Positions 13,330 to 38,158 of a stretch of DNA of 64,000 nucleotides are shown one piece after another. The notes beneath the pieces were generated by a model. That model saw only the letters and a list, made by a program, of their open reading frames with translations. It did not search any database and was not told the DNA's origin. A program made the translations under genes and the position numbers. Source of the stretch: Arthrobacter sp. SW1 (lineage in GTDB: Bacteria > Actinomycetota > Actinomycetes > Actinomycetales > Micrococcaceae); the NCBI RefSeq assembly GCF_001766675.1, contig NZ_MJLT01000034.1, forward strand, positions 1 through 64,000. Direction: 5' to 3'. The number at the start of each line of letters is the position of its first letter. The first letter of the stretch is position 1.

Positions 13330-13405
13330 GCCTGCACTCCTGCCGGGTTCGGCGTCAGCCGGGGATCACATTGGGGAAGCCAAGGAAAAGCTTGGATTGC
13401 CGAGG

Positions 13406-13438
13406 TTGTTTAATGTGCAACCATTGCGCAATACGCAA
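13406..13438. promoter_or_regulatory. Two 15-bp inverted repeats upstream of proV
   Basis: TTGTTTAATGTGCAA (13406-13420) and TTGCGCAATACGCAA (13424-13438) share TTGYN-NAATN-NGCAA and are 18 bp apart, so they could bind two dimers on one face. A degenerate copy, TTGCGCATCGTGCGG, is at 13552-13566 before the tetR gene. The rest of the 301-bp gap 13330-13630 shows no reading frame or hairpin I would call. Confidence 0.7.
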
Positions 13439-13630
13439 CACGGTGACGTAGCTCACATCGTCTTGTCAAGCATTCGCCCCACTTGTTCCGCTTCGTGACT
13501 TGCGTTGAACAGAAGGATCTGATTCGGCTTCGACGCGCCATCTGAAATTTGTTGCGCATCGTGCGGCTATGACGGCCGCTGCGGGGCGCGCGAGGATGCA
13601 GCGGTGCTGCTTTCGCCATAGTCTGGCCGG

Positions 13631-14215
13631 GTGGATACCAAGACAGTGAACGCCGGGGAGCAGGTGGACAGGCAGTCCCGCATTTTGGATGCGGTACTCG
13701 AACTCTTGTCGCGCCATGGAATTTCCGGCGTCAACATGCGGGCAGTGGCCCGCGAGGCCGGCGTCGCGCTCGGGCTTGTCAACTACTACTACGCGGACAA
13801 GCCGAGCCTGATCCGTGCGGTGCTGGGCAGGATCGGCGAGAGCGATATGAGGCTGGTGTCTCCCGATCCGGAGGCACTCCCTGATGAGCAGCTTCGTGAT
13901 GCCCTGCGGCGGGTCGCCGCGCCGGAAATCCTCACCACGCAGTACCTGTCCCTCCGGCTGCATCTCTGGGCGCTTGCTCAGGCCGATGAAGAGTTCGCCG
14001 CGATCAACGCCGAAGCGTTCGACCAATACCTGGATGGCCTTGCCGCGCTGATCGGCAACGCGAAGCCCGGACTCTCGCCGGAAGAGTGCAAGGACCGGGC
14101 TGCGGACATCGTGGTGGTACAGAACGGCATGTGGCTGACCTCCCTGCTGGGGATCGACAAGTCCTCCATCGAGCGGAGCATCGTCCGCACCGAAGAAATC
14201 GCCTTCGCCGACTAG
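13631..14215 (+). CDS. TetR-family regulator, BetI-like
   Basis: A 194-residue repressor with an N-terminal TetR helix-turn-helix at about residues 16-60 (RILDAVLELLSRHGISGVNMRAVAREAGVALGLVNYYYADKPSLIRAVL) and an all-helical ligand domain. The variant LGLVNYYYADK is common in BetI-type proteins that sense choline. The start is GTG at 13631. The gene lies directly upstream of betA-betB in the same direction, separated by 319 bp containing two TTGAACA/TGTTCAA palindromes, so a role as choline-responsive repressor of betAB is the simplest reading. Identity as BetI is inferred from context. Confidence 0.82.
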   Translation: MDTKTVNAGEQVDRQSRILDAVLELLSRHGISGVNMRAVAREAGVALGLVNYYYADKPSLIRAVLGRIGESDMRLVSPDPEALPDEQLRDALRRVAAPEILTTQYLSLRLHLWALAQADEEFAAINAEAFDQYLDGLAALIGNAKPGLSPEECKDRAADIVVVQNGMWLTSLLGIDKSSIERSIVRTEEIAFAD

Positions 14216-14534: not shown

Positions 14535-16238
14535 ATGACCGAGAGTAGCTACGACTACGTCATCGTAGGTGGGGGAAGCGCCGGCTCCGTGCTGGCCAAC
14601 CGTTTGAGTGAAGGCGGCACGCGCAGTGTCCTGGTCCTTGAAGCGGGCCGCAGCGACTTCCCGTGGGACCTGTTCATCCAGATGCCGGCAGCGCTGACTT
14701 TCCCCAGCGGCAACCCGTTCTACGACTGGCGCTACCAGTCGGATCCGGAGCCCTACATGGGCGGCCGCCGCGTGGCCCACGCCCGCGGCAAGGTGCTGGG
14801 CGGTTCCAGCTCCATCAACGGCATGATCTTCCAGCGCGGCAACCCCATGGACTACGAACGCTGGGGCGCCGACGCCGGCATGGAGACCTGGGACTTCGCG
14901 CACTGCCTTCCCTACTTCCGCCGCATGGAGAACACCCTCGCCGCCGATCCCGAGGACGAGTTCCGCGGCCACGACGGCCCTTTGGTGCTCGAGCGCGGCC
15001 CGGCCACCAATCCGCTGTTCCAGTCCTTCTTCCAGGCAGCCCAGCAGGCCGGCTACCCGCTGACGGACGACGTCAACGGCTACCGCCAGGAAGGTTTCGC
15101 TCCCTTCGACCGCAACGTCCACAAGGGCCAGCGCCTTTCGGCCTCCCGTGCGTACCTGCGCCCCAACACCGGCCGCCACAACCTCAAGGTCCTCACCCGG
15201 GCGTTCGTCACCAAGGTCAACTTCAAGGGCAACGTGGCCACCGGCGTCACCTTCCGCCGCAACGGCAAGCTGCACACCGTCAACGCAGGCGAGGTCATCC
15301 TGTCCGGCGGCGCCATCAACACCCCGCAGCTGCTGCAGCTTTCCGGTGTGGGCGATGCCCAGCACCTGAAGTCCCTGGGCATCAACCCGGTGGTCAACCT
15401 GCCCGGCGTCGGCGAAAACCTGCAGGACCACCTGGAGGTCTACATCCAGCACGCCTGCACCCAGCCGGTGTCCATGCAGCCCGCCCTGGACGTCTGGCGC
15501 ATGCCGTGGATCGGCATGCAGTGGCTCTTCGGCCGCACCGGCCCGGCGGCCACCAACCACTTCGAAGGCGGCGGCTTCGTCCGCTCCAACGAGGACGTGG
15601 CCTACCCGAACCTCATGTTCCACTTCCTGCCCGTCGCGGTCCGCTACGACGGCCAGAAGGCGGACGCGAAGCACGGCTACCAGGTGCACATCGGTCCCAT
15701 GTACTCGGACGCCCGGGGCAGCCTGAAGATCAAGTCCACGGACCCCACGGTCCACCCGTCCATGGTCTTCAACTACCTCTCCACCGACCAGGACCGCCGC
15801 GAATGGGTCGAAGCGGTGCGCATCTCCCGCGACATCCTGGGCCAGTCCGCCATGGCACCGTTCAACGGCGGCGAGATCTCTCCCGGCCCCCGCGTCCAGA
15901 CGGACAAGGAGATCCTGGAGTGGGTTGCCGAGGACGCCGAGACCGCGCTGCACCCGTCCTGCACCGCCAAGATGGGCCCGGCATCGGACCCGATGGCAGT
16001 GGTCGATCCGCTGACCATGGGCGTGCACGGCACCAAGGGCCTGCGCGTGGTGGACGCCTCCGCCATGCCGTATGTCACCAACGGCAACATCTACGCGCCG
16101 GTGATGATGCTGGCCGAGCGCGCCTCGGACCTCATCCTCGGCAAGACGCCGCTCGCGGCGCAGCACACCGAGTTCTACCGCCACGGCATCTCCCCGCTGG
16201 AGCGGGACAAGTCCGCAAGCCAGGCAGTGAAGGGCTAA
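14535..16238 (+). CDS. betA: Choline dehydrogenase (GMC oxidoreductase)
   Basis: Oxidises choline to betaine aldehyde, and often the aldehyde further, passing electrons to the membrane chain. It has 567 residues, near E. coli BetA (556). The FAD dinucleotide motif [14 protein letters not shown] is at residues 11-24. GMC signature 1 lies around [18 protein letters not shown] (86-103), and signature 2 around [17 protein letters not shown] (257-273). The catalytic His473 is in [14 protein letters not shown] at 14535 follows AAGGAG; an upstream in-frame ATG at 14406 would lie at the transcription start and is rejected. betB begins 4 nt after its stop. Confidence 0.94.
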
Positions 16239-16242
16239 GGCG

Positions 16243-17748
16243 ATGACCATCACGGAAACCGAAACGAAGACCGTCCGCGGCATCTTCATCGACGGCGCCT
16301 GGCACGAGGCGTCCGACGGCGGGACGACCGTTGTGCGCTGCCCGGCGGACGGGCGCGAGGTGGCTGTTGTCGCCTCCTCCACCGTCGAGGACGCGGAGCG
16401 GGCGATCGCCAGCGCACGTGCCGCGTTCGACGGCGGCCCCTGGCGCCGGATGACGGACCTGGAACGCGGTGAGGTGCTGCTCCGCATCGCCGGGCTGCTC
16501 GAACGGGACAAGGCGATCTATGCCCGGGCCGAGTCGCTGGACACGGGCAAGCGCCTTGTCGAAGCCGAGTACGACATCGACGACATCGCCGCCTGCTTCC
16601 GCTACTACGGCAAGGTGGCCGGCCTCGACGCCGGCCGGGTCATCGACACCGGCCGGCCGAACGCCATCAGCCGCGTGGTCTACGAACCGCTCGGCGTGTG
16701 CAGCCTCATCGCACCGTGGAACTACCCGCTCCTCCAGGCAGCCTGGAAGGTGGCCCCGGCTCTCGTCGCCGGCAACTCCTTCGTGCTCAAGCCGAGCGAG
16801 CTGACGCCGTCGACGTCCATCCTCCTGATGGAAACGCTGGCAGAGGCGGGCGTTCCCGCCGGCGTCGCGAACCTGGTCACGGGCAAGGGTTCCAAGGTGG
16901 GCCCGGTGCTGAGCTCGGACCCGCGGGTGGACCTCGTGTCCATGACCGGAAGCCTGGCCACGGGGCAGACCATCATGGCAGCGGCTGCGGACACCGTGAA
17001 GCGCGTCGCCTTCGAACTCGGCGGGAAGAATCCCAACGTCGTCTTCGCGGACGCTGACTGGGACTCCGCCGTCGACAACGCCCTGACCGCGGTGTTCCTG
17101 CACTCCGGCCAGGTGTGCTCGGCCGGCGCGCGGCTGGTGGTCGAGGAGTCCATCGCCGAGCGCTTCGTCGCGGAGGTGGTGGAGCGGGCCAAGAAGATCC
17201 GGATGGGCGGACCCTTCGATCCCGAGGCGGAAACCGGTCCACTTATCTCCGCGAAGCACCGCGAGCAGGTCCACGCCTATGTCCAGGCGGGCATCGCGGA
17301 AGGCGCCGAGCTGCTGTGCGGCGGGTACATCCCCGACGACGGCGTGCTGGCCGATGGCTTCTTCTACCCGCCCACGGTGCTCGCCAACTGCCGTTCGGGC
17401 ATGAGCGTGCTGAAGGAGGAATCCTTCGGTCCGGTGCTGACCGTGGAGACCTTCCGGAGCGAAGACGAAGCCATCGCCATCGCCAACGACACGGAATACG
17501 GACTGGCAGGTGCGGTCTGGACCTCGGACGGCTCGAAGGCGCAGCGTGTAGCCAGTGCCCTCCGGCACGGGACGGTGTGGATCAACGACTACCACCCGTA
17601 CGTGCCGCAGGCGGAATGGGGCGGCTTCGGCAAGTCCGGCATCGGCCGTGAACTTGGCAGCGCCGGCCTCAACGAATACCGCGAGGCAAAACACATCTGG
17701 CAGAACATCCAGCCCGCTCCCAGCGGCTGGTTCGGCCAGCCCGCCTAA
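16243..17748 (+). CDS. betB: Betaine aldehyde dehydrogenase
   Basis: Oxidises betaine aldehyde to glycine betaine with NAD(P)+. The 501-residue aldehyde dehydrogenase has IAPWNYP (Asn160), the general-base Glu258 in FELGGKNPNV, and the nucleophile Cys292 in HSGQVCSAGARL. The C-terminal ESFGPVLTVETF and WINDYHPYVPQAEWGGFGKSGIGRELG motifs are typical of BetB-type ALDHs. It is 4 nt downstream of betA, forming the betAB operon. A hairpin and an APC permease gene follow. Specificity is inferred from the betA partnership. Confidence 0.93.
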   Translation: MTITETETKTVRGIFIDGAWHEASDGGTTVVRCPADGREVAVVASSTVEDAERAIASARAAFDGGPWRRMTDLERGEVLLRIAGLLERDKAIYARAESLDTGKRLVEAEYDIDDIAACFRYYGKVAGLDAGRVIDTGRPNAISRVVYEPLGVCSLIAPWNYPLLQAAWKVAPALVAGNSFVLKPSELTPSTSILLMETLAEAGVPAGVANLVTGKGSKVGPVLSSDPRVDLVSMTGSLATGQTIMAAAADTVKRVAFELGGKNPNVVFADADWDSAVDNALTAVFLHSGQVCSAGARLVVEESIAERFVAEVVERAKKIRMGGPFDPEAETGPLISAKHREQVHAYVQAGIAEGAELLCGGYIPDDGVLADGFFYPPTVLANCRSGMSVLKEESFGPVLTVETFRSEDEAIAIANDTEYGLAGAVWTSDGSKAQRVASALRHGTVWINDYHPYVPQAEWGGFGKSGIGRELGSAGLNEYREAKHIWQNIQPAPSGWFGQPA

Positions 17749-17895: not shown

Positions 17896-19509
17896 ATGTC
17901 AGAAATGCGCAGCACTGGCACAAGCAAGACCGCTGATACCAGCGGAATGGACGAGTTCGGCTACGCCCAGACACTCGACCGCAGCATCGGAAAGTTCGCA
18001 AGTTTCGCCGCCGGCGTCAGCTACATCTCCATCCTGACCGGCGTTTTCCAACTGTTTTACTTTGGCTTCTCCACCGCCGGACCGGCCTATGCCTGGTCCT
18101 GGCCCATTGTTTTCGTCGGCCAGTTGATGGTCGCACTCTGTTTTGCCGAACTCGCCGGGCGCTACCCGGTGGCCGGCTCCGTTTACAACTGGGCCAAGCG
18201 GCTCACGACGGGCACCTTCGCCTGGCTTTCGGGCTGGCTGCTGCTGATCTCCTCGATCGTGGCACTTGGCTCCGTGGCCCTGGCCCTGCAGATCACCCTG
18301 CCGCAGCTCTGGGAGGGGTTCCAGATCGTCGGCGACGGCACCGGCCCGTTCGACTTCGCGGCCAACGGCGTATTGCTGGCCACGATCATGATCACCATCT
18401 CCACCCTGATCAACGCCTTCGGCGTGAAGCTGATGACCAAGATCAACAGCATCGGCGTGTTCGTCGAGCTGATCGCGGCCGCCCTGCTCATCGTGGCCCT
18501 GTTCTGGCACGTCGTGAACGGCCCGGAAGTCCTCTTCGACACCTCGGGCTTCGGTGAGGAACACCCCATGGGCTTCTTCGGCGTCTTCCTGATCGCCGCC
18601 ATGGCCTCCGGCTACGTCATGTACGGCTTCGACACCGCTTCCTCGCTGGGCGAGGAAACCAAGGACCCCAAGAAGACCGCGCCGAAGGCGATCATCCGCG
18701 CCGTCACCGCGTCCTTCCTGCTCGGCGGCCTGATGCTCTTCGGCGGCATCCTCGCCGCACCGGACCTCAACGATCCCAAGCTCGGCGCAGCCGACGGCGG
18801 CCTGCAGTACATCGTGCTGTCCGTCCTGGGCGGCCCCTTCGGCAAGGCGTTCCTGGCCTGCATCGTGGTGGCCGTGGTGGTCTGCACCCTGGCCGTCCAC
18901 GCCGCGGCGATCCGCATGATGTTCGCCATGGCACGTGACAACAACCTGCCGTTCAGCCGCCAGCTCAGCAAGGTGGACCCGGTCCGCAAGACCCCCACCG
19001 TTGCTGCGATCGTGATCGGTGTCCTGGCCATCATCCCGCTGCTCGTCAACGTGGCGCAGCCGGCCATCTTCACCATCCTCTCCAGCATCAGCATCGTCCT
19101 GATCTACCTGTCCTACCTGTTGGTCACCGTCCCGATGCTGCGCCGCCGCTTCCTGAAGAAGTGGCCGCTGCCGGACGACGGCACCGAGGTGGGCTTCAGC
19201 CTCGGCAAGTGGGGCTTCGTGGTGAACCTCCTGGCGGTGCTGTGGGGCGCCGCCATGACGATCAACCTGATCTGGCCGCGCCAGGAGATCTACAACTCCG
19301 TGCCGCCGTTCGAGTGGTACCTGCAGTGGGGCGGCGTCTTCTTCGTGGGGGCCGTGGCCGTTGCCGGCATCCTGCTCTACCGCCTGAAGATCCGGCACCA
19401 GACCGGCGTGCTCGCCGAGCACGCAGCCGCGGTCGCTGCCCACCCGTCCTCGGGCCCTCCTACGGAAGCGGTGGTCACGGAGAAGGCCGGGATTGACACC
19501 CGGGTGTGA
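17896..19509 (+). CDS. APC-superfamily amino acid/amine permease (possible choline uptake)
   Basis: A 537-residue membrane transporter with about 12 helices. The N-terminal segment SIGKFASFAAGVSYISILTGVFQLFYFGFSTAGP and FAELAGRYPVAGSVYNWAKR are classic APC motifs for helices 1-3; FDTASSLGEETKDPKKTAPKAIIRAV is the conserved cytoplasmic loop after helix 6. ATG at 17896 follows TTTAGGAG; the longer frame from 17821 begins inside a hairpin. It lies just after betAB in the same orientation, so choline or a related quaternary amine is a reasonable substrate guess, but many APC carriers take amino acids or polyamines. Confidence 0.82.
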   Translation: MSEMRSTGTSKTADTSGMDEFGYAQTLDRSIGKFASFAAGVSYISILTGVFQLFYFGFSTAGPAYAWSWPIVFVGQLMVALCFAELAGRYPVAGSVYNWAKRLTTGTFAWLSGWLLLISSIVALGSVALALQITLPQLWEGFQIVGDGTGPFDFAANGVLLATIMITISTLINAFGVKLMTKINSIGVFVELIAAALLIVALFWHVVNGPEVLFDTSGFGEEHPMGFFGVFLIAAMASGYVMYGFDTASSLGEETKDPKKTAPKAIIRAVTASFLLGGLMLFGGILAAPDLNDPKLGAADGGLQYIVLSVLGGPFGKAFLACIVVAVVVCTLAVHAAAIRMMFAMARDNNLPFSRQLSKVDPVRKTPTVAAIVIGVLAIIPLLVNVAQPAIFTILSSISIVLIYLSYLLVTVPMLRRRFLKKWPLPDDGTEVGFSLGKWGFVVNLLAVLWGAAMTINLIWPRQEIYNSVPPFEWYLQWGGVFFVGAVAVAGILLYRLKIRHQTGVLAEHAAAVAAHPSSGPPTEAVVTEKAGIDTRV

Positions 19510-19547
19510 CCCCTGCCATATTTCAATAACGCGCCATGCGCATCGTG

Positions 19548-19562
19548 TTGTGTAATACGCAA
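19548..19562. promoter_or_regulatory. 15-bp inverted repeat upstream of mscR
   Basis: TTGTGTAATACGCAA matches the proV-upstream box TTGCGCAATACGCAA at 13 of 15 positions. It lies 140 bp before the mycothiol-dependent formaldehyde dehydrogenase gene and after the permease gene, so it probably controls the mscR module. Confidence 0.7.
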
Positions 19563-19598
19563 TTAGACGAGGCTTGTGTGGAGCTACCCTTTCGAGCA

Positions 19599-19626
19599 AC
19601 CCGGCTACCCCTTTGGGTAGCCGGGT
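19599..19626 (+). terminator. Rho-independent-type hairpin after the APC permease gene
   Basis: A perfect 12-bp stem, ACCCGGCTACCC with GGGTAGCCGGGT, with loop CTTT, followed shortly by GGGTTTTC. Because it lies downstream of the TTGTG box it may instead act as a leader structure for mscR. Confidence 0.6.
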
Positions 19627-19701
19627 GCCGGGTTTTCAGCTCATACCATGGGTAAGTCGTATCGGGGCTTGCGCCCGGTCAACGGAAGGAAACAAGGAAA
19701 C

Positions 19702-20787
19702 GTGGTTCATAAGGTCCAGGCGGTAGTCGTCAAGGAAAAGAACGCCCCCGCCGTCATCGAGACCATCCTGGTCCCGGAACCGGGTCCGGGCGAGGCTTTG
19801 GTCGATGTCCTGACGTGCGGTGTCTGCCACACCGACCTGCACTACAAGCTCGGCGGCATCGGCAACGACTACCCGTACCTGCTCGGGCACGAATCCACCG
19901 CAGTCGTCAGCCAGGTGGGCCCCGATGTCACGGACCTCAAGCCCGGCGACCGCGTGATCCTCAACTGGCGCGCCGTCTGCGGCAACTGCCGCGCCTGCGC
20001 CAAGGGCCAGCCGCAGTACTGCTTCGCCACCCACAACGCCACCCAGAAGATGACCCTCGAAGACGGCACTCCGCTTTCCCCGGCGCTGGGCATCGGTTCC
20101 TTCGCCGAGAAGACCCTCGTGGCAGCCGGCCAGTGCACCAAGATCGATGACGACGTCGACCCCGCCGCTGTCGGCCTGCTCGGCTGCGGCATCATGGCCG
20201 GCATCGGCGCCGCCATGAACACCGGTGAGGTCAAGCGCGGCGAGTCTGTCGCCGTCATCGGCTGCGGCGGCGTCGGCATTGCCGCCATCGCCGGAGCCAA
20301 GCTGGCAGGCGCGACGACGATCATCGCCGTCGACCTCGACCCCGCCAAGGTGGAACTCGCCAAGACCCTCGGTGCCACCCACGGCGTCGTCTCCGGCGAC
20401 ACCGACCCCGTCGAAGCGATCCGCGAACTCACCGACGGCAACGGCGCCGACGTCGTAATCGACGCCGTCGGCCGCCCGGAGACCTACAAGCAGGCCTTCT
20501 ACGCCCGCGACCTCGCCGGCCGCGTGGTACTGGTGGGTGTCCCGACGCCGGAAATGACCCTCGAACTGCCCCTGCTGGATGTGTTCGGCCGCGGCGGCTC
20601 GCTCAAGTCGTCCTGGTACGGCGACTGCCTGCCGTCCCGTGACTTCCCGATGCTCGTGGACCAGTACCGCCTGGGCCGCCTGCCGCTGGATGCCTTCGTG
20701 ACCGAACGCATCGGCCTGGGCGACGTGGAAGCCGCCTTCGAGAAGATGCACCGCGGCGAGGTCCTGCGCTCGGTGGTGGAAATCTGA
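19702..20787 (+). CDS. mscR: S-(hydroxymethyl)mycothiol dehydrogenase (formaldehyde detoxification)
   Basis: A zinc-dependent medium-chain dehydrogenase that oxidises the spontaneous formaldehyde-mycothiol adduct to S-formylmycothiol with NAD+. It has 361 residues, the usual family length. Catalytic zinc ligands include Cys39 ([11 protein letters not shown]) and His63 (GHE); structural zinc uses Cys93, 96, 99 and 107. The NAD motif is [11 protein letters not shown]. The C-terminal [14 protein letters not shown] stretch is characteristic of the mycothiol-dependent group. I chose GTG at 19702, preceded by AAGGAAA, over the frame from 19648. It overlaps the metallo-hydrolase gene by one base (TGATG). 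Context: formaldehyde is released by GbcAB. Confidence 0.9.
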
Positions 20788-21404
20788 TGGCCGTCACCGT
20801 AGAGAACCGGGTCACCTCCGGCACGTTTTCGCTCGACGGCGGCACCTGGGACGTGGACAACAACGTCTGGATCGTGGGCAATGACGAGGAATGCGTCATC
20901 ATCGATTCCCCGCATGACGCCGCCGCGATCGTGGAGCAGGTCCGTGGCCGCAAGGTGCTGGCCATCCTGATGACGCACGCCCACAACGACCACATCGGCG
21001 CGGCACGCGAGGTGGCTGCCGCCGTCGGCGCCCCCATCCACCTGCACCCGGAAGACATGGTCCTGTGGAAGCAGGTCTACCCGGACGTCCAGCCGGACCA
21101 GTTCCTTTCCGACGGCCAGGAATTCACGGTGGGCGGCGCCACGCTGAAGGCGATCCACACCCCGGGCCACTCGCCGGGATCCACTTGCTTCTACCTGGAA
21201 AGCGAAGGCACCGTCTTCACCGGGGACACGCTGTTCAACGGTGGCCCCGGGGCCACCGGCCGCTCGTTCAGCGACTACCCGACCATCCTGTCCTCGATCC
21301 GGGAGCGCCTCCTGACGCTGCCGGCCGAAACGGTGGTGCGTACCGGCCACGGCGACAACACCACCATCGGCGCCGAACGCGAGACCCTCGCGCAGTTGGC
21401 GTAA
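20787..21404 (+). CDS. MBL-fold metallo-hydrolase linked to mycothiol formaldehyde oxidation
   Basis: A 205-residue metallo-beta-lactamase-fold hydrolase of the glyoxalase II-like branch. The metal-binding motif THAHNDH gives His64, His66, Asp68 and His69, with IHTPGHSPGS and VFTGDTLFNG supplying the further His and bridging Asp, and TGHGDNT the last His. It is translationally coupled to mscR (1-nt overlap), as seen in many actinobacteria. It is therefore a good candidate for hydrolysing S-formylmycothiol to formate and mycothiol. That activity is inferred from linkage, not read from the motif. Confidence 0.88.
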   Translation: MAVTVENRVTSGTFSLDGGTWDVDNNVWIVGNDEECVIIDSPHDAAAIVEQVRGRKVLAILMTHAHNDHIGAAREVAAAVGAPIHLHPEDMVLWKQVYPDVQPDQFLSDGQEFTVGGATLKAIHTPGHSPGSTCFYLESEGTVFTGDTLFNGGPGATGRSFSDYPTILSSIRERLLTLPAETVVRTGHGDNTTIGAERETLAQLA

Positions 21405-21436
21405 CAGTCCATCCGGCCGGGGTCCCGGCCACCGAA

Positions 21437-21454
21437 GTACACCGTTGTACACCG
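21437..21454 (+). promoter_or_regulatory. Direct repeat before the formate-dehydrogenase-like gene
   Basis: GTACACCG occurs at 21437-21444 and 21447-21454, spaced 10 bp (one helical turn), in the 76-bp gap before 21481. It may be a binding site or chance. Confidence 0.3.
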
Positions 21455-21480
21455 CAGTTCCACAGTGAGGCACTCCCGGC

Positions 21481-23787
21481 ATGAAATTCACCAAGCAGCC
21501 TGCGCCCGTCGCGGACATCGACGAAACGCAGCTTGAGGTCCACAAGCCCAAGAAGGAAGCCGCCGGCGTCAAGGCCGTCATGGTCGCCCTGGACCGGGCC
21601 GTCGCCCAGGCCGGCGTGACCCGTTCGGTGCAGTCCCTGTTCCGGCTCAACCAGAAGGGCGGCTTCGACTGCCCGGGCTGCGCCTGGCCGGAAACGGACG
21701 GCAAGCGCAAGGCCGCCGAGTTCTGCGAGAACGGTGCCAAGGCTGTGGCGGAGGAAGCCACGCTGCGGACTGTTGGCGCCGAATTCTGGGCGCAGCACTC
21801 CATCGAGGAACTGCGGGACAAGACCGAATACTGGCTGGGCAGCCAGGGCAGGCTCAGTGAACCCGTGGTGATCCGCCCGGGTGACACGCACTATTCGCCG
21901 ATCTCCTGGGCGGATGCCTTCGCCTTGATCGGAGAGCACGTCCGGGCAAGTACGCCGGAGCGTTGCGTCTTCTACACCTCCGGGCGGACTGCGAACGAGA
22001 CGGCGTTCATTTACCAGCTGTACGCCCGTGCGCTCGGCACCAACAACCTGCCGGACTGCTCCAATATGTGCCACGAGTCGTCCGGCTCTGCGCTGAACCC
22101 CACCATCGGTATCGGCAAGGGCACGGTGTCCCTGGAGGACCTGCACGAGGCCGAGCTGATCTTTGTAGTGGGCCAGAATCCGGGCACCAACCACCCGCGC
22201 ATGCTGGGCGCCCTGCAGGAATGCAAGGAGAACGGCGGCAAGGTGGTGGCCGTGAACCCGCTGCCCGAGGCGGGCTTGTTCAACTTCAAGGATCCGCAGA
22301 CCTTCTCCGGCGTGGTGGGCAACGGCACCCCCATTGCCGATGAGTTCCTGCAGATCAAGGTGGGCGGCGACCTTGCACTGTTCCAGGCCTTGGGCCACCT
22401 GCTCCTGGAAGAGGAGAAGCGCAACCCGGGCACCGTCGTCGACCGCGCGTTCATCGAGGCCCAGACCGACGGCTTTGAAGCCTACGCCCAAGCCCGTGCC
22501 ACCCTGGACTGGAAGGTCACCGAGGAAGCCACTGGCCTGTCCCGCGAACAGATCGAGACCGTTGCCGGGATGCTGATCCGTTCCAAGGCCTCCATTTTCT
22601 GCTGGGCTCTTGGCGTCACGCAGCAGCCACACTCGGTGGACACCATCAAGGAAATGGTCAACGTCCTGCTGCTGCAGGGCAATTTCGGCAAGCCCGGCGC
22701 CGGTGCCTGCCCGGTGCGCGGCCACTCCAACGTGCAGGGCGACCGCACCATGGGCATCTGGGAAAAGCCGGCCGAGCCGCTCCTGGAAGCCCTGGACCGT
22801 GAATTCGGAATCGTTTCCCCGCGGGAGCACGGCCATGACGCCGTGGAGACCCAGCACGCCTTGGAAAACGGTGACGTGGACGTGTTTGTTTGCATGGGCG
22901 GCAACTTCGCCGCTGCTGGCTCGGACACCGAAGCCCTGGAAGCCGGCATGCAGCGCGCCGGTCTCACGGTCCACATCTCCACCAAACCCAACCGTTCGCA
23001 CATCGTGCACGGCAAGACCTCCCTGATCCTGCCCACCCTGGGGCGCACGGACCGCGACGACAAGCATGCCAAGGGCATCCAGTTCCTCTCCGTGGAAAAC
23101 TCCATGTCCGTGGTGCACTCCACCCAGGGCAGGCTCCAGCCGGTGTCCGAGCATCTGCTGGCTGAGCCGGTCATCGTTGCCCGCATGGCCGAAGCCACCT
23201 TCGGCCCGGAACACCCCGTGGACTGGCGGGCCATGGCCGAGGACTACGACGTCATCCGGGACCACATCTCCCGCGTGATCCCGGGCTTCGAAGACTTCAA
23301 CACCCGGGTGCGGAACAAAGCCGGCTTTGTGCTGCCCAATCCGCCGCGGGACACCCGTTCCTTCAAGACCGACATCGGCCGCGGCCGCTTCACGGTGAGC
23401 CCGCTGGAGTACCTCACCCCGCCGCCCGGCCACCTGGTACTGCAGACCATGCGCAGCCATGACCAGTACAACACCACCTTCTACGGCCTCGATGACCGGT
23501 ACCGCGGCATCTCGGACGGCCGCCGCGTCATCCTGGTCCACCCGAAGGACCTGGCCGCGCAGGGCTTCCAGGACCGGGACCTGGTGGACGTCATCAGCGT
23601 TTTCCAGGGATCGGAACGCCGGGCGGACAAGTTCCGGCTGGTCGCCTACCCCACGGCAGAGGGCTGCGCCGCCGCGTACTTCCCGGAAGCCAACGCGCTC
23701 GTCCACAAGGAGAACGTGGCACGCGTGTCCAACACCCCCGGGTTCAAGGCGATGTTCGTCCGTTTCGTACCGCACGTGGAGGGCTGA
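21481..23787 (+). CDS. Molybdopterin oxidoreductase, FdhF/YdeP-type formate dehydrogenase-like alpha subunit
   Basis: A 768-residue molybdenum enzyme of the FdhA/YdeP alpha-subunit group. CPGCAWPE (Cys64, Cys67) begins the N-terminal iron-sulphur-type region. SNMCHESSG places Cys197 as probable Mo ligand instead of selenocysteine. GNFGKPGAGACPVRGHSNVQGDRTMG is the family's cofactor-binding loop, and the C-terminal MopB domain includes HDQYNTTFYG. Its position after mscR and the metallo-hydrolase suggests it oxidises formate to CO2, finishing formaldehyde removal and consuming PurU-derived formate. No beta/gamma electron-transfer subunits or fdhD lie alongside, so the electron acceptor is unknown. 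YdeP itself has a different, poorly understood role in E. coli. Confidence 0.85.
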   Translation: MKFTKQPAPVADIDETQLEVHKPKKEAAGVKAVMVALDRAVAQAGVTRSVQSLFRLNQKGGFDCPGCAWPETDGKRKAAEFCENGAKAVAEEATLRTVGAEFWAQHSIEELRDKTEYWLGSQGRLSEPVVIRPGDTHYSPISWADAFALIGEHVRASTPERCVFYTSGRTANETAFIYQLYARALGTNNLPDCSNMCHESSGSALNPTIGIGKGTVSLEDLHEAELIFVVGQNPGTNHPRMLGALQECKENGGKVVAVNPLPEAGLFNFKDPQTFSGVVGNGTPIADEFLQIKVGGDLALFQALGHLLLEEEKRNPGTVVDRAFIEAQTDGFEAYAQARATLDWKVTEEATGLSREQIETVAGMLIRSKASIFCWALGVTQQPHSVDTIKEMVNVLLLQGNFGKPGAGACPVRGHSNVQGDRTMGIWEKPAEPLLEALDREFGIVSPREHGHDAVETQHALENGDVDVFVCMGGNFAAAGSDTEALEAGMQRAGLTVHISTKPNRSHIVHGKTSLILPTLGRTDRDDKHAKGIQFLSVENSMSVVHSTQGRLQPVSEHLLAEPVIVARMAEATFGPEHPVDWRAMAEDYDVIRDHISRVIPGFEDFNTRVRNKAGFVLPNPPRDTRSFKTDIGRGRFTVSPLEYLTPPPGHLVLQTMRSHDQYNTTFYGLDDRYRGISDGRRVILVHPKDLAAQGFQDRDLVDVISVFQGSERRADKFRLVAYPTAEGCAAAYFPEANALVHKENVARVSNTPGFKAMFVRFVPHVEG

Positions 23788-23800
23788 GCCCTCAAGCGTC

Positions 23801-23839
23801 CGACGGCGACACCCGGCACTCTGCCGCGTGTCGCCGTCG
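23801..23839. repeat. REP-like palindrome, copy 1 (terminator-like)
   Basis: A 39-nt hairpin: outer arms CGACGGCGACAC (23801-23812) and GTGTCGCCGTCG (23828-23839), a C/C mismatch, then inner arms CGGCA/TGCCG around CTC. Nearly identical to the element at 26389-26429. Lies between converging genes and probably ends both transcripts. Confidence 0.8.
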
Positions 23840-23864
23840 TGCGTTAACGCGTTAGCTGCTGGCT

Positions 23865-26388: not shown

Positions 26389-26429
26389 ACGACGGCGACA
26401 CTCGGCACTTTGCCGCGTGTCGCCGTCGT
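26389..26429. repeat. REP-like palindrome, copy 2 (terminator-like)
   Basis: A 41-nt hairpin: ACGACGGCGACAC (26389-26401) with GTGTCGCCGTCGT (26417-26429), a T/C mismatch, and inner CGGCA/TGCCG around CTT. Differs from the copy at 23801 at only a few bases. Between the GNAT-like gene and the converging dehydrogenase gene. Confidence 0.8.
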
Positions 26430-27615: not shown

Positions 27616-30156
<2,541 letters not shown>

Positions 30157-31086
30157 TTAGCGGAAGACGACGGTGCGGGTGTTGTTGAGCAGGACCCGGT
30201 GCTGGCAGTGCCACTTCACTGCGCGGGACAGTGCCTGGGACTCGGCGTCCCTGCCGACGGTGACCAGGGCGTTCGGATCCAGGCTGTGGTCCACCCGGAA
30301 AACTTCCTGCTCGATGATCGGGCCCTCATCCAGGTCTGCGGTGACGTAGTGGGCGGTGGCTCCGATGAGCTTCACGCCGCGGTCCCAGGCCTGGTGGTAG
30401 GGCTTGGCGCCCTTGAAGCCGGGCAGGAAGGAGTGGTGGATGTTGATGGCGCGGCCGCGGAGCTTGGTGGTGAGCTCATCCGAGAGGACCTGCATGTAAC
30501 GGGCCAGGACCACCAGGTCTGCCTGGTATTCCTCGACCAGTTCCAGCAGGCGCGCCTCGGCCTGGGGCTTGGTGTCCGCGGTGATCGGCACGTGGATGAA
30601 CGGCAGGCCTGCGGCTTCCGCCATCGGGCGGAGGTCTTCGTGGTTGGAAACCACGACGGCGATCTCCGCACCCAGGCTGCCTGCGCGCCACCGGAAGATG
30701 AGGTCGTTGAGGCAGTGGCCGAACTTCGAGACCATCACCAGCAGGCGCTGGGGGCGGCCGTCGTGGATCGCGAACTCCATCTCGAACTCTTCGGCGACGG
30801 CGGCGAACTCGGCGCTCAGGCCCTCCGCGGAAACTTCCTTGTCCCCGGTGGTGAAGGCGGTGCGCAGGTAGAGCTTGCCGCTCATGTGGTCATCGAACTG
30901 CTGGTGTTCGACGATGTCGAAGCCGCGGTCGGCGAGGAAGCCCGTGATGGCCCGGACGATACCCGGGCGCTCCGGGCAGGCAAGGGTGAGGACGTACTGC
31001 GCGGTGCTGGTACCGCGGACGCTGGGGACGGCGCCGGCTTCGGCTGTTGCGCCACCCGTGGGGCGGCTTTCGAGGACGGTGGTCAT
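30157..31086 (-). CDS. purU: Formyltetrahydrofolate deformylase (copy 1)
   Basis: Hydrolyses 10-formyl-THF to THF and formate. The 309-residue protein has an N-terminal ACT domain (YVLTLACPERPGIVRAITGFLADRGFDIVEHQQF, about 31-65) and a C-terminal formyltransferase fold. The catalytic triad appears as Asn/His in GRAINIHHSFLP and Asp in TADLDEGPII. A 30-residue leader precedes the ACT domain. It sits 3 nt after the BCCT gene and 33 nt before dmgO, so it likely keeps free THF available for the oxidase. A second purU (46984) follows the sarcosine oxidase genes. The substrate supply would need FolD, which is not in the window. Confidence 0.93.
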   Translation of the reverse strand: MTTVLESRPTGGATAEAGAVPSVRGTSTAQYVLTLACPERPGIVRAITGFLADRGFDIVEHQQFDDHMSGKLYLRTAFTTGDKEVSAEGLSAEFAAVAEEFEMEFAIHDGRPQRLLVMVSKFGHCLNDLIFRWRAGSLGAEIAVVVSNHEDLRPMAEAAGLPFIHVPITADTKPQAEARLLELVEEYQADLVVLARYMQVLSDELTTKLRGRAINIHHSFLPGFKGAKPYHQAWDRGVKLIGATAHYVTADLDEGPIIEQEVFRVDHSLDPNALVTVGRDAESQALSRAVKWHCQHRVLLNNTRTVVFR

Positions 31087-33024: not shown

Positions 33025-33168
33025 GTCAAGTCCTCTGGTTTGGATTCATGGGCTGGCGCTGCACTCCGGGCTCCACGGGCCGGGCGGAAGGTGGGGGCTT
33101 CCTGGCTTTCAGTGGACAGAGTCAGCGCTGGTTTTGACCTGAGCGTTTGTTCCGCAAAGATCAACACG

Positions 33169-33478: not shown

Positions 33479-33491
33479 GCCCGAATGGTGC

Positions 33492-34901
33492 TCAGGCGTC
33501 GATGACGAGGTCTGTCTGCGCAGTGGAGCAGCAGGGCAGGAACTTGCCGGCTGCGATTTCCCGCGCGCGGATTCCGCCCTGGTGGTTCATGTCGACCTCT
33601 CCCGAAAGCTTGACGACCTTGCAGGAGCCGCACATGCCTTCCTTGCAGTTCGCGCCGATCCTGACGCCTGCGCGCTGGGCTGCGTCGAGGATGGGCTCAC
33701 TGGGGTCGATCCGCACATTGATGCCGGTGCGCATGAAGGACATGGTGAGGCTGCCGGTGCCCACGGTGTTGAAGCCCGACGCATCGGGAGCGGCCGCCTC
33801 AGGCGCCGCGCCGCCGTCGGAGGCTTTGGAACCCGGTTCCTCCGGGACAGCCACTTCCAGCGGCAGCCCGGAAGCTTCCAGGGGCCCGTTGGCGTCGTAT
33901 CCGGGCTCGTAGAGTCCGAACGCTGCGGGCTGGCTCTCGTAGTAGTCCTCGGCGGATTCGGCGATCTCCTCCGCGATTTCTTCTGCGATGTTTTCAGCCA
34001 GGGCGAGTTCCGTCTGGTACTCAAGGAGCGTCTGGCGGTCGCCCGAGAAGAACTCCATGTAGATGGAGGTATCGTCGACGCCGACTTTCTTGAGGAGCTC
34101 GGTGGCTCCGTTCAGGTACCCCTCGGGGCCGCAGGCGTACACCTGGCGGCCGTTGGCATCCGGAGCCACTTCGTTGAGCATGGCCGCCGACAGCCGACCG
34201 CTGAGTCCTTCCCAATCGTCGGGCCGGCCGCGGTCACCAAGGGAGTAGAAGACCCGGAACCGCGAATCCACGGAGGCGATGTGCGCCAGCTCGCGGTCGA
34301 AGGCGAAGCCTCCGGCCTCGGAGCCGTGGTAGAGCACCACAACATCCGCCAGCCCGGGCAGGGAGTGGATGGTCCGCACCATCGACATGATGGGAGTGAT
34401 GCCGGCGCCGGCGGCGAGCAGGAGGTACCGGGCCCGGCGGTCGGCGTCGGGCAGGTGGAATGCGCCTACCGGACCGAGCATCTCAAGGACGGTACCGGGC
34501 TTGACGTTTTCGTGGACCCACGGCGAGACAAGTCCCGCGGGGTCGCGCTTGACGCTGATGCTGAAGGTCCATGGCTGCGTTGGCGAACTGGACAGCGAGT
34601 AGCTGCGGTCCACCGGGTCCGCGTCCTCGCCGTGCAGCGGGAAAGCGACGTTCACGTACTGGCCGGCACGGAACGCCAGGGGCGCGCCGTCGCAGCGGCG
34701 GAACACGAAGGTCATGATTCCGCCGGCCTCGGGAACGGTCTCGACGCATTCGGCCATGAACTCCTGTGGGTGCCAGGGGCCCAGGGCGTGGGCGGCGCGG
34801 GCAGGCACTTCGGTGCCGCCCATTACCCTGTTCCACGGCATTTCAAGGCCGCGGATGCGCTGTGGCTCCAGGATTGCCGTTTCGGGGAGGAGCTCAATCA
34901 T
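33492..34901 (-). CDS. gbcB: Glycine betaine demethylase reductase (FAD / 2Fe-2S)
   Basis: Passes electrons from NAD(P)H to the Rieske oxygenase GbcA. The 469-residue protein has a ferredoxin-reductase FAD domain (RSYSLSSSP at 99-107), an NAD domain (AAGAGITPIMSM at 163-174; VYACGPEGYL at 254-263), and a C-terminal plant-type ferredoxin with Cys419, Cys424, Cys427 and Cys457. An acidic, low-complexity linker of roughly 80 residues (about 295-380, with IAEEIAEEIAESAEDYYE) joins reductase and ferredoxin, longer than expected for GbcB. ATG at 34901 overlaps the gbcA stop (ATGA). Longer in-frame starts lie inside gbcA. Confidence 0.92.
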   Translation of the reverse strand: MIELLPETAILEPQRIRGLEMPWNRVMGGTEVPARAAHALGPWHPQEFMAECVETVPEAGGIMTFVFRRCDGAPLAFRAGQYVNVAFPLHGEDADPVDRSYSLSSSPTQPWTFSISVKRDPAGLVSPWVHENVKPGTVLEMLGPVGAFHLPDADRRARYLLLAAGAGITPIMSMVRTIHSLPGLADVVVLYHGSEAGGFAFDRELAHIASVDSRFRVFYSLGDRGRPDDWEGLSGRLSAAMLNEVAPDANGRQVYACGPEGYLNGATELLKKVGVDDTSIYMEFFSGDRQTLLEYQTELALAENIAEEIAEEIAESAEDYYESQPAAFGLYEPGYDANGPLEASGLPLEVAVPEEPGSKASDGGAAPEAAAPDASGFNTVGTGSLTMSFMRTGINVRIDPSEPILDAAQRAGVRIGANCKEGMCGSCKVVKLSGEVDMNHQGGIRAREIAAGKFLPCCSTAQTDLVIDA

Positions 34902-36202
34902 GCCAAGTGCTCCTGCACGCGCTGTACGTACCAGTTGATGAATGCTTCCACCTGGTATTCGCTCTTCATGTACGGGCCGGGCTCGTAGGCCGGGCTGGCG
35001 GCGCCCTGCTGGCACAGCTCCACGAACGCCTTGTCCTGGATGTTCGTCTGCTTCCACACGTAGGTGAGCTTGTCCAGGTCGTAGTCAACGCCTTCCACGG
35101 CGTCGTCGGCAACCAGCCAGGTGGTCCGGACCAGGGTCTGGTGCTCGTTGATGGGGAAGACGCCGAAGGTGATGACGTGGTCGCCCATGAAGTGGAACCA
35201 GCTGTTGGGCTGCAGGTGCATCGAGCAACGACCGAGGCGGAAGTCGCGCAGGTCGCCGAGCAGCTTCTTGGAGAGGCGGCGCCCATCGGCGGAGAATGAC
35301 TCGCCGTCGCCGTCGAGGGCTTCACGGGAAATGCGGATGCCCGCGACGCGGGTGTCCAGCTGCTCGACCACCTCGTAGGGAAGGCCGTAGCGGCGGCAGC
35401 GGTCCTCGAGATCGGCCTGGGCCTGCTTGTTGCGCTCCCACACTTCCTCAAGGTGGGTGGGGATGAGGCCCTCGGTCAGGCCCCAGGTGGGGAAGAGGGA
35501 GCAGGCGAGTTCCGGGTGCCCGTCGCAGTGGTAGCACTCACGGTTGTTCTCCATGACGAGCTTCCAGTTGCCCTCTTCGATGATGTTCTGCTGGTAGGCG
35601 ATCTTCGTCTTCGCCAGCTCGTGGGGCGCGAGGTAGGGCTCGAAGATCTTCGAGGTCTCGTCGAAGTCGGTGGGCGGCTCGCTGGCGATGCAGACGAAGA
35701 TCAGGCCGGCGACTTCGCGGCCGTGGGCGCGCTTGAGCGCGAAGCAGTTCTTGTCGAACTTGGTCTCACCCGGTGCCGAGGCGTGGATCAGGTTGCCCTC
35801 GGGGGAGTAGGTCCAGGAGTGGTAGCCGCAGACCAGGTTGCCGGTGGAGCCGGTGGCTTCGGTCAGGACGCGGGCACCGCGGTGTCGGCAGACGTTGTGC
35901 AGGACGTTCACGCCGCCGTCGTCATTGCGCAGCACGATCAGGGAGTAGGGGCCGTAGTCGACGGTGACGTAGTCCCCGGGCTCGGGCAGTTCAGCGGTGC
36001 TGGCCGCGAAGATCCAGTGCTGGCCGAAGATGGCCTCCATGTCGAGGCTGAAGATCGTGGGGTCCGTGTAGAACGGGGCATCCAGGGAGTAGCCGGTGCG
36101 CCGGAACTCAAACAACGCGGTGATTTCTGCCAGCTGCTCGGCAGGCAGGGTTGAAGCGAGCTTTCCGCGTGAATTCAGGGGCGCGTTCACTGAAGTAGTC
36201 AT
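34898..36202 (-). CDS. gbcA: Glycine betaine demethylase, Rieske oxygenase subunit
   Basis: Oxidatively removes one methyl from glycine betaine, giving dimethylglycine and formaldehyde. The 434-residue alpha subunit has the Rieske cluster motif C-R-H (Cys105, His107) and C-G-Y-H (Cys125, His128). The mononuclear iron site is in NNRECYHCDGHPEL (His225, His229). ATG at 36202 follows GGAGGAAA; the frame from 36223 has no ribosome site. It is coupled to gbcB and divergent from a lysR gene with an 8-bp-arm inverted repeat between. Stachydrine or other Rieske demethylases are related, but the neighbouring dmgO and sox genes support betaine. Confidence 0.93.
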   Translation of the reverse strand: MTTSVNAPLNSRGKLASTLPAEQLAEITALFEFRRTGYSLDAPFYTDPTIFSLDMEAIFGQHWIFAASTAELPEPGDYVTVDYGPYSLIVLRNDDGGVNVLHNVCRHRGARVLTEATGSTGNLVCGYHSWTYSPEGNLIHASAPGETKFDKNCFALKRAHGREVAGLIFVCIASEPPTDFDETSKIFEPYLAPHELAKTKIAYQQNIIEEGNWKLVMENNRECYHCDGHPELACSLFPTWGLTEGLIPTHLEEVWERNKQAQADLEDRCRRYGLPYEVVEQLDTRVAGIRISREALDGDGESFSADGRRLSKKLLGDLRDFRLGRCSMHLQPNSWFHFMGDHVITFGVFPINEHQTLVRTTWLVADDAVEGVDYDLDKLTYVWKQTNIQDKAFVELCQQGAASPAYEPGPYMKSEYQVEAFINWYVQRVQEHLA

Positions 36203-36307
36203 GGGTTTCCTCCCGGGAGGCATGGGTGAATGGGTGTTGCGTGTCGATCACGGGCATGTGGGTGCAAGCGGCGTGCTCGAAGTCCTTATTGAATGAGATT
36301 AGGATCA

Positions 36308-37348: not shown

Positions 37349-38158
37349 TCAGCGCCGTGCGTAACCCATGCGCGCGCTGATCCTCAGCCCGGCTTCCTTC
37401 AGCCCGTCCAGCACCCCCGGTTCGGTTTCCGGATCGAAGCGGAAGGCGGGGCCGGAGATGCTGACGGCCCCGATGACCGCGCCCACGTGGTTGAACACCG
37501 GGACGGACATCGAGGTGAGTCCGATCTCGAACTCCTCCCTCACCACGCCGTAACCCTGGCGGGCGACGTCGAGCAGCTGGGTTTCGAGGACCTTCCTGTC
37601 CGTGATGGTGCGCGGCGTACGGGCCGGCAGCCCGGTTTCCTTCAGGATCCGTGCGCGCTCGTCCGCAGGCAGCCCCGCGAGCAGGACCTTGCCGCTGCTG
37701 GTCGCGTGCAGCGGCGTCAGGCTGCCCACCCAGTCGTAGGTGGCAAGGGTGGACGGGCCCATGGCCTGGTCCACGTTCACGGCGAAGTTGGAGCGGAGCA
37801 CCGCCAGGTTGACGGTTTCCTTGAACTCTTCGGCCAAGGCCTCGAGGACCGGCCGCGCTTCCCGTACCAGGCTCAGTCTGCCGGGGATGGAACTGGCCAG
37901 GCGCAGGATGCCGAAGCCAAGCTGGTACTTGCCGCGCTCGCTGTTCTGATGGACCATGTCGCGGCTGACCAGGGAACCAAGCAGGCGCGACACCGTGGAT
38001 TTGTGAATGCCCATCTCCTCGGCAATTTCACTCACGCCGGCATGGCCGTCCCTGGCCAGGATCTCCAGCACCGCCAGCGCCCGGTCAACCGACTGGACGC
38101 CGCCATGCTGCCCGCCGTCTGCCTCAACATCCGGTTCGGCGTCAACGTTTGAAACCAT
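37349..38158 (-). CDS. IclR-family transcriptional regulator
   Basis: A 269-residue regulator with an N-terminal winged helix-turn-helix at about 20-85 (VQSVDRALAVLEILARDGHAGVSEIAEEMGIHKSTVSRLLGSL) and a GAF-like IclR effector domain (LHATSSGKVLLAGL, REEFEIGLTSMSVPVFN). The gene converges on the lysR gene. A half-copy of the 15-bp TTG...CAA repeat, TTGTGTAAT, is 46 bp upstream of its start, which makes it a candidate for the protein that reads that box in this region. That link is inference. IclR proteins commonly control degradative pathways with small-molecule effectors. Confidence 0.9.
   Translation of the reverse strand: MVSNVDAEPDVEADGGQHGGVQSVDRALAVLEILARDGHAGVSEIAEEMGIHKSTVSRLLGSLVSRDMVHQNSERGKYQLGFGILRLASSIPGRLSLVREARPVLEALAEEFKETVNLAVLRSNFAVNVDQAMGPSTLATYDWVGSLTPLHATSSGKVLLAGLPADERARILKETGLPARTPRTITDRKVLETQLLDVARQGYGVVREEFEIGLTSMSVPVFNHVGAVIGAVSISGPAFRFDPETEPGVLDGLKEAGLRISARMGYARR

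What the first reader, a model, noticed from the sequence alone, without database searches (positions are those of the whole stretch)
19548..23787. Formaldehyde-to-CO2 module embedded in the betaine region
mscR, a coupled metallo-hydrolase and an FdhF/YdeP-like molybdoenzyme follow the shared box. Order and coupling suggest S-hydroxymethyl-mycothiol to S-formylmycothiol to formate to CO2. This would give a function to the metallo-hydrolase as S-formylmycothiol hydrolase, a step that is usually left unassigned, and to a YdeP-like protein as a genuine formate dehydrogenase that also burns PurU formate.
Basis: inference. Interest (0 to 1): 0.6.

Follow-up and report, generated by a model that had tools for sequence, protein, structure and literature searches.

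The report
Betaine-linked formaldehyde-to-CO2 gene cluster
A soil actinobacterium carries, beside its choline and betaine genes, a row of three genes that very probably turns the toxic formaldehyde released from betaine into formate and then carbon dioxide; each enzyme kind is already known, but the three-gene arrangement and its shared control site are a modest new variant.

Summary
mscR, an MBL-fold hydrolase and an FdhF/YdeP molybdoenzyme lie in that order on the + strand behind a palindromic box; mscR and the hydrolase gene overlap (TGATG).

The pathway reading is well supported. In an order-wide sample, 109 of 111 mscR genes have this hydrolase gene directly downstream; both exceptions, in one assembly, carry its first 33 codons there. 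The hydrolase keeps all seven metal ligands of the glyoxalase II type. The third gene keeps the formate dehydrogenase Cys/His/Arg set, as does YdeP.

The two "unassigned" functions are already in print: S-formylmycothiol hydrolase Fmh in Mycobacterium smegmatis, FdhF in Corynebacterium glutamicum and FdhF/YdeP proteins acting on formate in Pseudomonas putida. The PurU part is inference; the genome holds two more FdhF paralogues.

New here: the third gene joins the pair in the window's own genus. A 17-bp palindrome lies within 400 bp upstream of mscR in 25 of 41 such clusters, the window included, and in 0 of 51 ordinary mscR-hydrolase loci. Both exact places in this genome lie in the betaine region. 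This suggests a choline/betaine-controlled C1-oxidation operon.

The parts
19547..19563 (.). Palindromic box GTTGTGTAATACGCAAT upstream of mscR, probable operator
   Evidence: a perfect site within 400 bp upstream of mscR in 25 of 41 fdhF-bearing clusters of the genus (this one included) and 0 of 51 loci of the ordinary pair
13423..13439 (.). Second copy of the box (ATTGCGCAATACGCAAC), between proV and the BetI-type TetR gene
13405..13421 (.). Degenerate copy of the box beside the second one
19702..20787 (+). mscR, S-(hydroxymethyl)mycothiol dehydrogenase (mycothiol-dependent formaldehyde dehydrogenase)
   Evidence: TIGR03451 645.1 bits, cut-off 512.9
20787..21404 (+). MBL-fold hydrolase, predicted S-formylmycothiol hydrolase (Fmh type); ATG overlaps the mscR stop
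21481..23787 (+). fdhF, FdhF/YdeP-family molybdoenzyme, predicted formate dehydrogenase
   Evidence: TIGR01701 910.3 bits, cut-off 582.15; Cys/His/Arg set conserved
23801..23845 (.). Strong GC-rich hairpin after fdhF; a 95% identical copy of its first 40 bases at 26390-26429
   Evidence: fold of 23796-23860 -39.5 kcal/mol
13631..14215 (+). TetR regulator with BetI-type C-terminal domain, one candidate for binding the box
   Evidence: Pfam TetR_N and TetR_C_6
14535..16238 (+). betA, choline dehydrogenase
   Evidence: TIGR01810 860.7 bits, cut-off 732.1 (searched from 14526 in the same frame); ATG at 14535
16243..17748 (+). betB, betaine aldehyde dehydrogenase (name from reading and neighbours, no family search run on it)
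   Evidence: translation; found behind betA in relatives
27616..30123 (-). N,N-dimethylglycine oxidase
   Evidence: 1305.5 bits over its whole length to PDB 1pj5, N,N-dimethylglycine oxidase
30157..31086 (-). purU, formyltetrahydrofolate deformylase, a possible second source of formate
   Evidence: TIGR00655 334.9 bits, cut-off 285.95
34898..36223 (-). GbcA-like glycine betaine monooxygenase oxygenase subunit, the likely formaldehyde source (inference)
   Evidence: best hit NF058607 390.5 bits but below its cut-off 670
37349..38158 (-). IclR-family regulator, other candidate for binding the box
   Evidence: Pfam IclR_C and HTH_IclR

Best explanation
It is a formaldehyde-dissimilation operon placed under choline/betaine control. 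Betaine demethylation releases formaldehyde, which binds mycothiol spontaneously. MscR oxidises S-hydroxymethylmycothiol to S-formylmycothiol. The MBL-fold hydrolase (Fmh type) splits that thioester at a two-metal site, giving formate and free mycothiol. FdhF oxidises formate to CO2 and passes the electrons to an acceptor that is not encoded among the three genes. FdhD, encoded elsewhere in the genome, matures FdhF. Shown here: gene order, overlap, family membership, conserved catalytic residues, conserved linkage, recurring box. Inferred: substrates, induction by choline or betaine, maturation in trans, and use of PurU formate.
For: mscR is over the TIGR03451 cut-off. In 198 genomes of the order, 109 of 111 mscR genes have this hydrolase gene directly downstream, most gaps under 60 nt between the aligned parts. 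The two exceptions, both in genome G005, are each followed by the first 33 codons of the hydrolase gene; one copy then runs straight into N, and the rest of a hydrolase gene lies elsewhere on that scaffold, also after unknown bases. 74 of 80 named loci, mostly mycobacteria and rhodococci, have mscR upstream of it. All seven metal-ligand positions of the glyoxalase II type (H64, H66, D68, H69, H128, D147, H188) are invariant in 23 sequences (ligand roles recalled). The model (pLDDT 90) matches S. aureus GloB, BLEG-1 and YcbL best. FdhF keeps the residues aligned with E. coli FdhH U140 (as Cys), H141 and R333 (roles recalled). The only fdhD found lies beside a paralogue 80% identical to the window FdhF. 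In Rhodococcus tukisamuensis a fdhF-fdhD pair lies within 3 kb of mscR-hydrolase. mscR, hydrolase and fdhF stand together in 26 of 28 best-scoring genus loci and 13 of 20 further ones; 20 of 23 fdhF-bearing loci read over longer stretches also show betaine-pathway genes (counted). The box recurs in 25 of 41, the window included.
Against: The Cys/His/Arg set is also present in E. coli YdeP, so it does not separate a formate dehydrogenase from YdeP. The usual four-Cys iron-sulfur motif of FdhH is only half kept (positions 8 and 11, not 15 and 42). No electron-accepting subunit lies among the three genes. 16 of 41 fdhF-bearing clusters have no perfect box within 400 bp (four of them, L104, L120, L246 and L248, have one further upstream), and 3 of 11 close pairs without fdhF have one, although for one of these, L007, the contig ends before fdhF could be seen. 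Only 3 of 68 FdhF genes in the order sample sit behind mscR or the hydrolase, all in the window's genus and one of them the window itself. 7 of 20 further genus loci lack fdhF. Two other FdhF genes in the genome could do the formate step. No activity was measured.
Confidence: 0.75

Rival explanations
1. The hydrolase is a general mycothiol glyoxalase II that splits several S-acylmycothiols such as S-lactoylmycothiol, and S-formylmycothiol breaks down by itself.
For: Best structural and sequence relatives are glyoxalase II type enzymes. A 2022 review says S-formyl-MSH is hydrolysed spontaneously in C. glutamicum (PMC8879981 passages).
Against: It is fixed behind mscR in 109 of 111 cases and falls well below the GloB equivalog cut-off (92.1 against 200.8 bits). 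A review names an S-formyl-mycothiol hydrolase, Fmh, for exactly this step (PMC10950700 passages).
Confidence: 0.12
2. The third gene is not a formate dehydrogenase but a YdeP-like molybdoenzyme with another role, for example acid stress or reduction of an oxyanion, carried along by chance.
For: E. coli YdeP is of the same family and keeps the same three residues. A milk study lists ydeP among genes that might reduce chlorate, without proof (PMC13094775 passages).
Against: Linkage to mscR-hydrolase recurs across the genus. The cluster copies are sister to a paralogue beside fdhD. Family members act as formate dehydrogenases in P. putida, by mutant phenotypes (PMC10308882 passages).
Confidence: 0.15
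3. The pair mainly removes S-nitrosomycothiol (MscR is also a nitrosomycothiol reductase), and its place beside betaine genes is incidental.
For: The dual role of MscR is stated in PMC10950700 (passages).
Against: A hydrolase has no evident use in nitrosomycothiol reduction; fdhF and betaine genes are repeatedly linked and the second exact box of this genome lies between proV and the TetR gene.
Confidence: 0.05

Closest known systems
mscR-fmh of Mycobacterium smegmatis (Wani and Jain 2024, cited in PMC10950700)
   Same: Mycothiol-dependent formaldehyde dehydrogenase plus S-formylmycothiol hydrolase (review passages); that fmh is a putative metallo-beta-lactamase directly downstream of mscR is recalled from the abstract, the paper itself was not held
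   Different: No fdhF in the mycobacterial operon as recalled; here fdhF is the third gene, with a box shared with choline/betaine genes
C. glutamicum FadH (cg0387) and FdhF (cg0618) route
   Same: Mycothiol-dependent formaldehyde oxidation followed by an FdhF (PMC4609165 passages)
   Different: There the locus numbers lie far apart (cg0387, cg0618) and formate oxidation also involves cg0616 and cg0617; here one cluster. The proteins were not compared by sequence here
P. putida PP_0256 and PP_4596, FdhF/YdeP-family formate dehydrogenases
   Same: Same family; assigned from formate-tolerance phenotypes of deletions, with complementation for PP_0256-57 (PMC10308882 passages)
   Different: PP_0256 is transcribed with fdhD and induced by formate; the window fdhF has no fdhD beside it
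Arthrobacter dimethylglycine/sarcosine genes with purU (Meskys 2001, cited in PMC3534580)
   Same: Dimethylglycine oxidase, sarcosine oxidase subunits, serine hydroxymethyltransferase and purU, also found in this window
   Different: The passages seen in PMC3534580 do not mention mscR, the hydrolase or fdhF; Meskys 2001 was seen only as a reference

Membership tests
S-(hydroxymethyl)mycothiol dehydrogenase (MscR) | Score over the curated equivalog model TIGR03451 | tested here: met
   645.1 against 512.9 bits
S-(hydroxymethyl)mycothiol dehydrogenase (MscR) | NAD- and mycothiol-dependent formaldehyde oxidation | not testable with these tools
   needs an assay
S-formylmycothiol hydrolase (Fmh) | MBL-fold protein encoded directly after mscR (feature recalled) | tested here: met
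S-formylmycothiol hydrolase (Fmh) | Sequence orthology to the M. smegmatis protein itself | not tested
   M. smegmatis was not named among the 80 loci returned. 74 of these 80 sit behind mscR; the 23 of them that were aligned are 54-62% identical to the window protein
S-formylmycothiol hydrolase (Fmh) | Hydrolysis of S-formylmycothiol | not testable with these tools
   needs an assay
Glyoxalase II (GloB equivalog) | Score over TIGR03413 | tested here: not met
   92.1 against 200.8 bits
S-formylglutathione hydrolase (FrmB/EstD) | Serine esterase with Ser-His-Asp triad (PMC4776306 passages) | tested here: not met
   All four Pfam matches are of the MBL superfamily
FdhF/YdeP family (TIGR01701) | Score over the curated model | tested here: met
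   910.3 against 582.15 bits
Classical formate dehydrogenase alpha (TIGR01591) | Score over the curated model | tested here: not met
   234.5 against 666.25 bits
Metal-dependent formate dehydrogenase | Mo ligand (Cys or Sec), His and Arg at the positions of FdhH 140, 141, 333 (roles recalled) | tested here: met
   also met by E. coli YdeP, so not decisive
Metal-dependent formate dehydrogenase | Four-Cys iron-sulfur motif of FdhH (8, 11, 15, 42; roles recalled) | tested here: not met
   only positions 8 and 11 kept; E. coli YdeP and both G000 paralogues are the same in this
Metal-dependent formate dehydrogenase | FdhD sulfurtransferase in the genome | tested here: met
   one gene, G000:C4, over the cut-off
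Metal-dependent formate dehydrogenase | Formate oxidation | not testable with these tools
   needs an assay

The most novel reading that the evidence does not exclude
The genus has built a dedicated choline/betaine regulon with its own operator in which mscR, the S-formylmycothiol hydrolase and a duplicated formate dehydrogenase form one expression unit. This FdhF is the common sink for formate from both the mycothiol branch and the folate/PurU branch, so that all three betaine methyl groups are burnt for energy by one regulated module.
Probability: 0.35. Interest if true: 0.45.

Novelty: new variant of a known kind. Interest (0 to 1): 0.3.

Why it matters
It ties formaldehyde removal and formate oxidation to choline/betaine use in a well-sampled actinobacterial genus, and gives a 17-bp site whose regulator can be hunted. 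The nearly fixed mscR-hydrolase pair over the order and in named mycobacterial and rhodococcal relatives supports the view that Fmh-type hydrolysis is general in mycothiol bacteria and not a mycobacterial peculiarity. The individual enzyme functions are not new.

Tried and rejected
Serine-esterase type formylthiol hydrolase: rejected, the Pfam matches are all of the MBL superfamily. True glyoxalase II and classical Fdh-alpha membership: rejected on curated cut-offs. Hydrolase as an accidental neighbour: rejected. The G005 exceptions as real loss of the hydrolase: rejected; the first 33 codons follow each mscR, one of them running into N (what follows the other was not printed).

The regulator of the box was not settled. 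The BetI-type TetR lies beside one box and an IclR-type gene lies further along, but neither follows the box consistently in other genomes: L254 has the TetR and no box, although its stretch begins inside the TetR gene, and L261 has the IclR and no box. Mycobacterium smegmatis was not named among the 80 loci returned. Literature: ten paper searches. Among the papers listed there, no title or passage that I read described an mscR-hydrolase-fdhF cluster under betaine control; most listed papers were not opened. A scan of ten further window ORFs with NCBIfam gave nothing that bears on the question.

Counts depend on sampling. The 28 genus loci are the best-scoring ones beyond those already fetched; the 20 were picked by hand from lower rows as a check. 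One search used all 111 mscR rows printed, the 117 hydrolase rows at 46% identity or more (partial matches included, the weaker rows below them left out) and all 68 FdhF rows. The order sample held seven genomes of the window's genus; in one, G024, the contig ends before fdhF could be seen. In one search, mscR matches under 60% identity or beginning after residue 40 were dropped, as were loci with under 300 bases upstream and loci whose last 120 upstream bases repeated an earlier one. Class A means a hydrolase at least 78% identical to the window's, class B the rest with a hydrolase nearby; one locus without a detectable hydrolase (0 of 1 with a site) stood apart. The 41 include the window and close relatives.
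Full report
What is there. Three genes stand in a row on the + strand. mscR runs from a GTG at 19702 to 20787, the MBL-fold hydrolase from 20787 to 21404, fdhF from 21481 to 23787; the first two overlap in TGATG and 76 nt separate the second and third. MscR and FdhF pass their curated models: TIGR03451 645.1 against 512.9 bits, TIGR01701 910.3 against 582.15. The hydrolase is a 205-residue MBL-fold protein; the 25 NCBIfam models shown for it all score below their cut-offs, while Pfam Lactamase_B is met. A strong hairpin follows fdhF at 23801-23845. Around the three lie choline and betaine genes: choline dehydrogenase, betaine/choline-type ABC transport parts, a BCCT transporter, GbcA/GbcB-like genes (below their curated cut-offs), N,N-dimethylglycine oxidase, serine hydroxymethyltransferase, sarcosine oxidase subunits and two purU genes.

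The pair mscR-hydrolase. In 198 genomes of the window's order, 110 have mscR over the family cut-off. Of 111 mscR genes, 109 have a relative of the hydrolase directly downstream on the same strand, with gaps of 2 to 174 nt between the aligned parts. Both exceptions are in one genome, G005. Each of its mscR genes is followed by the first 33 codons of the hydrolase gene; one of these runs straight into N, and the remaining part of a hydrolase gene lies elsewhere on the same scaffold, also after unknown bases. I read this as an assembly fault. Of the 117 hydrolase rows at 46% identity or more, 8 are not next to such an mscR; one of the 8, G016, does have mscR-like pieces next to it that did not reach the family threshold. 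In a scan of named genomes, 74 of 80 loci (mostly Mycobacterium and its split genera, Rhodococcus, Amycolatopsis) have mscR immediately upstream, Rhodococcus erythropolis among them; of the six without, three begin within 200 bases of the locus start.

What the hydrolase is likely to do. In 23 aligned sequences from the order and phylum, the seven metal-ligand positions of glyoxalase II type enzymes (in the motifs THxHxDH, TPGH, GDTLF and GHG; roles recalled) are invariant, as are a GGPGATGRS stretch and an N-terminal NNxW. AlphaFold2 gives a confident model (mean pLDDT 90.0, below 50 at 154-156) whose best solved relatives are S. aureus GloB 7l0b, BLEG-1 7ev5 and YcbL 2xf4. A thioesterase acting on a small thiol thioester right after the enzyme that makes S-formylmycothiol is the natural reading. 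It is no longer an open assignment: a 2024 review names S-formyl-mycothiol hydrolase (Fmh) and cites Wani and Jain 2024, whose title concerns M. smegmatis (PMC10950700 passages). I could not read that paper; that Fmh is a putative metallo-beta-lactamase in a two-gene operon with mscR is recalled. [quoted passage not shown]

What FdhF is likely to do. It aligns with E. coli FdhH (27% identity) and YdeP (41%). The positions of FdhH U140, H141 and R333 hold Cys, His and Arg in the window protein, in YdeP and in both G000 paralogues; of the four iron-sulfur cysteines only the first two positions are kept. The genome has three genes over the family cut-off. The C4 copy is 80% identical to the window's and lies beside the only fdhD found. 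In a tree of 46 proteins the 11 cluster copies used group together (support 0.945) with the C4 copy as sister (joint support 1.0); the C23 copy is drawn beside E. coli YdeP, with no support value printed for that. FdhF/YdeP-family members are assigned as formate dehydrogenases in P. putida from deletion phenotypes, with complementation for PP_0256-57 (PMC10308882 passages). FdhF (cg0618) is the formate dehydrogenase of C. glutamicum, with unknown electron acceptor (PMC4609165 passages); the C. glutamicum control genome scores over the TIGR01701 cut-off, but I did not compare the sequences. So a YdeP-like formate dehydrogenase is not a new idea.

The three-gene cluster. In the order sample 3 of 68 FdhF genes lie behind mscR or the hydrolase: the window's own, G183's and one in G005, all of the window's genus. 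In the genus the cluster is common: 26 of the 28 loci with the best-scoring hydrolases and 13 of 20 further loci chosen from lower in the list. Some genomes carry a second mscR-hydrolase pair without fdhF (L251 and L261). Of 23 fdhF-bearing loci read over 13-20 kb, 20 also show at least one of betA, dimethylglycine oxidase, purU, BCCT or gbcA; L104, L105 and L246 do not (counted by me). An independent case is Rhodococcus tukisamuensis (L211), where fdhF and fdhD lie within 3 kb of mscR-hydrolase on the other strand; it is the only one of the 80 named loci, with at most 3.5 kb of flank, that shows FdhF.

The box. The palindrome GTTGYGYAWTRCGCAAT stands upstream of mscR at 19547-19563, with a close copy at 13423-13439 between proV and a BetI-type TetR gene. 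In the 4.1 Mb genome the pattern with up to one mismatch occurs at three places. The two exact ones are these; the third, with one mismatch, is on another contig; the reversed control pattern gives none. Within 400 bp upstream of mscR a perfect site is found in 25 of 41 fdhF-bearing clusters (the window included), 3 of 11 close pairs without fdhF, and 0 of 51 loci of the ordinary pair. In L102 and L120 it stands before betA, with mscR further down the same row. When one search was run, 249,165 bases of other loci, two E. coli stretches among them, gave no hit with up to one mismatch. The pattern was drawn from the window sites and slightly widened, so the window sites themselves are no test; the recurrence in other genomes is.

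How it most likely works. Formaldehyde from the first betaine demethylation joins mycothiol; MscR makes S-formylmycothiol; the hydrolase frees formate; FdhF burns it. Methylene groups from dimethylglycine and sarcosine could reach formate through folate and PurU and meet the same FdhF (pathway knowledge and inference). Induction by choline or betaine is inferred; the regulator and the electron acceptor are unknown.

Verdict. The three-gene arrangement, common in the genus and often with its own operator-like site, is a modest new variant.

Noticed in passing
window 23801-23840 and 26390-26429: A 40-bp palindromic hairpin occurs twice at 95% identity, after fdhF and after the ORF 25638-26381, bracketing an EamA-like transporter (named by reading), a LysR regulator and that ORF.
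   Followed up: partly
window 30157-31086 and 46981-47883: Two purU genes in one window, one next to dimethylglycine oxidase and one after the sarcosine oxidase genes.
   Followed up: partly
L121 (G000:C4), fdhF at 33089-35299 and fdhD at 32210-32971: The only fdhD found in the genome sits beside an fdhF paralogue 80% identical to the window copy.
   Followed up: yes
L122 (G000:C23:322343-324553): A third FdhF/YdeP paralogue, drawn beside E. coli YdeP in the tree; role unknown.
   Followed up: partly
L119, L124 and L125 (G005:C17): Unknown bases and apparent scaffold disorder inside hydrolase genes; the gene looks lost in coordinate searches but its first 33 codons follow both mscR copies.
   Followed up: yes
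L211 (Rhodococcus tukisamuensis): fdhF-fdhD lie within 3 kb of mscR-hydrolase, on the opposite strand.
   Followed up: partly
L207: A MAG contig titled Bifidobacterium breve carries a hydrolase 74% identical to the mycobacterial-type query; probably a binning contaminant.
   Followed up: no
window 17896-19509: Amino-acid-permease-like transporter behind betB scores best to the urea-carboxylase-system permease model but below its cut-off (523.7 against 740.45 bits); substrate unknown.
   Followed up: no
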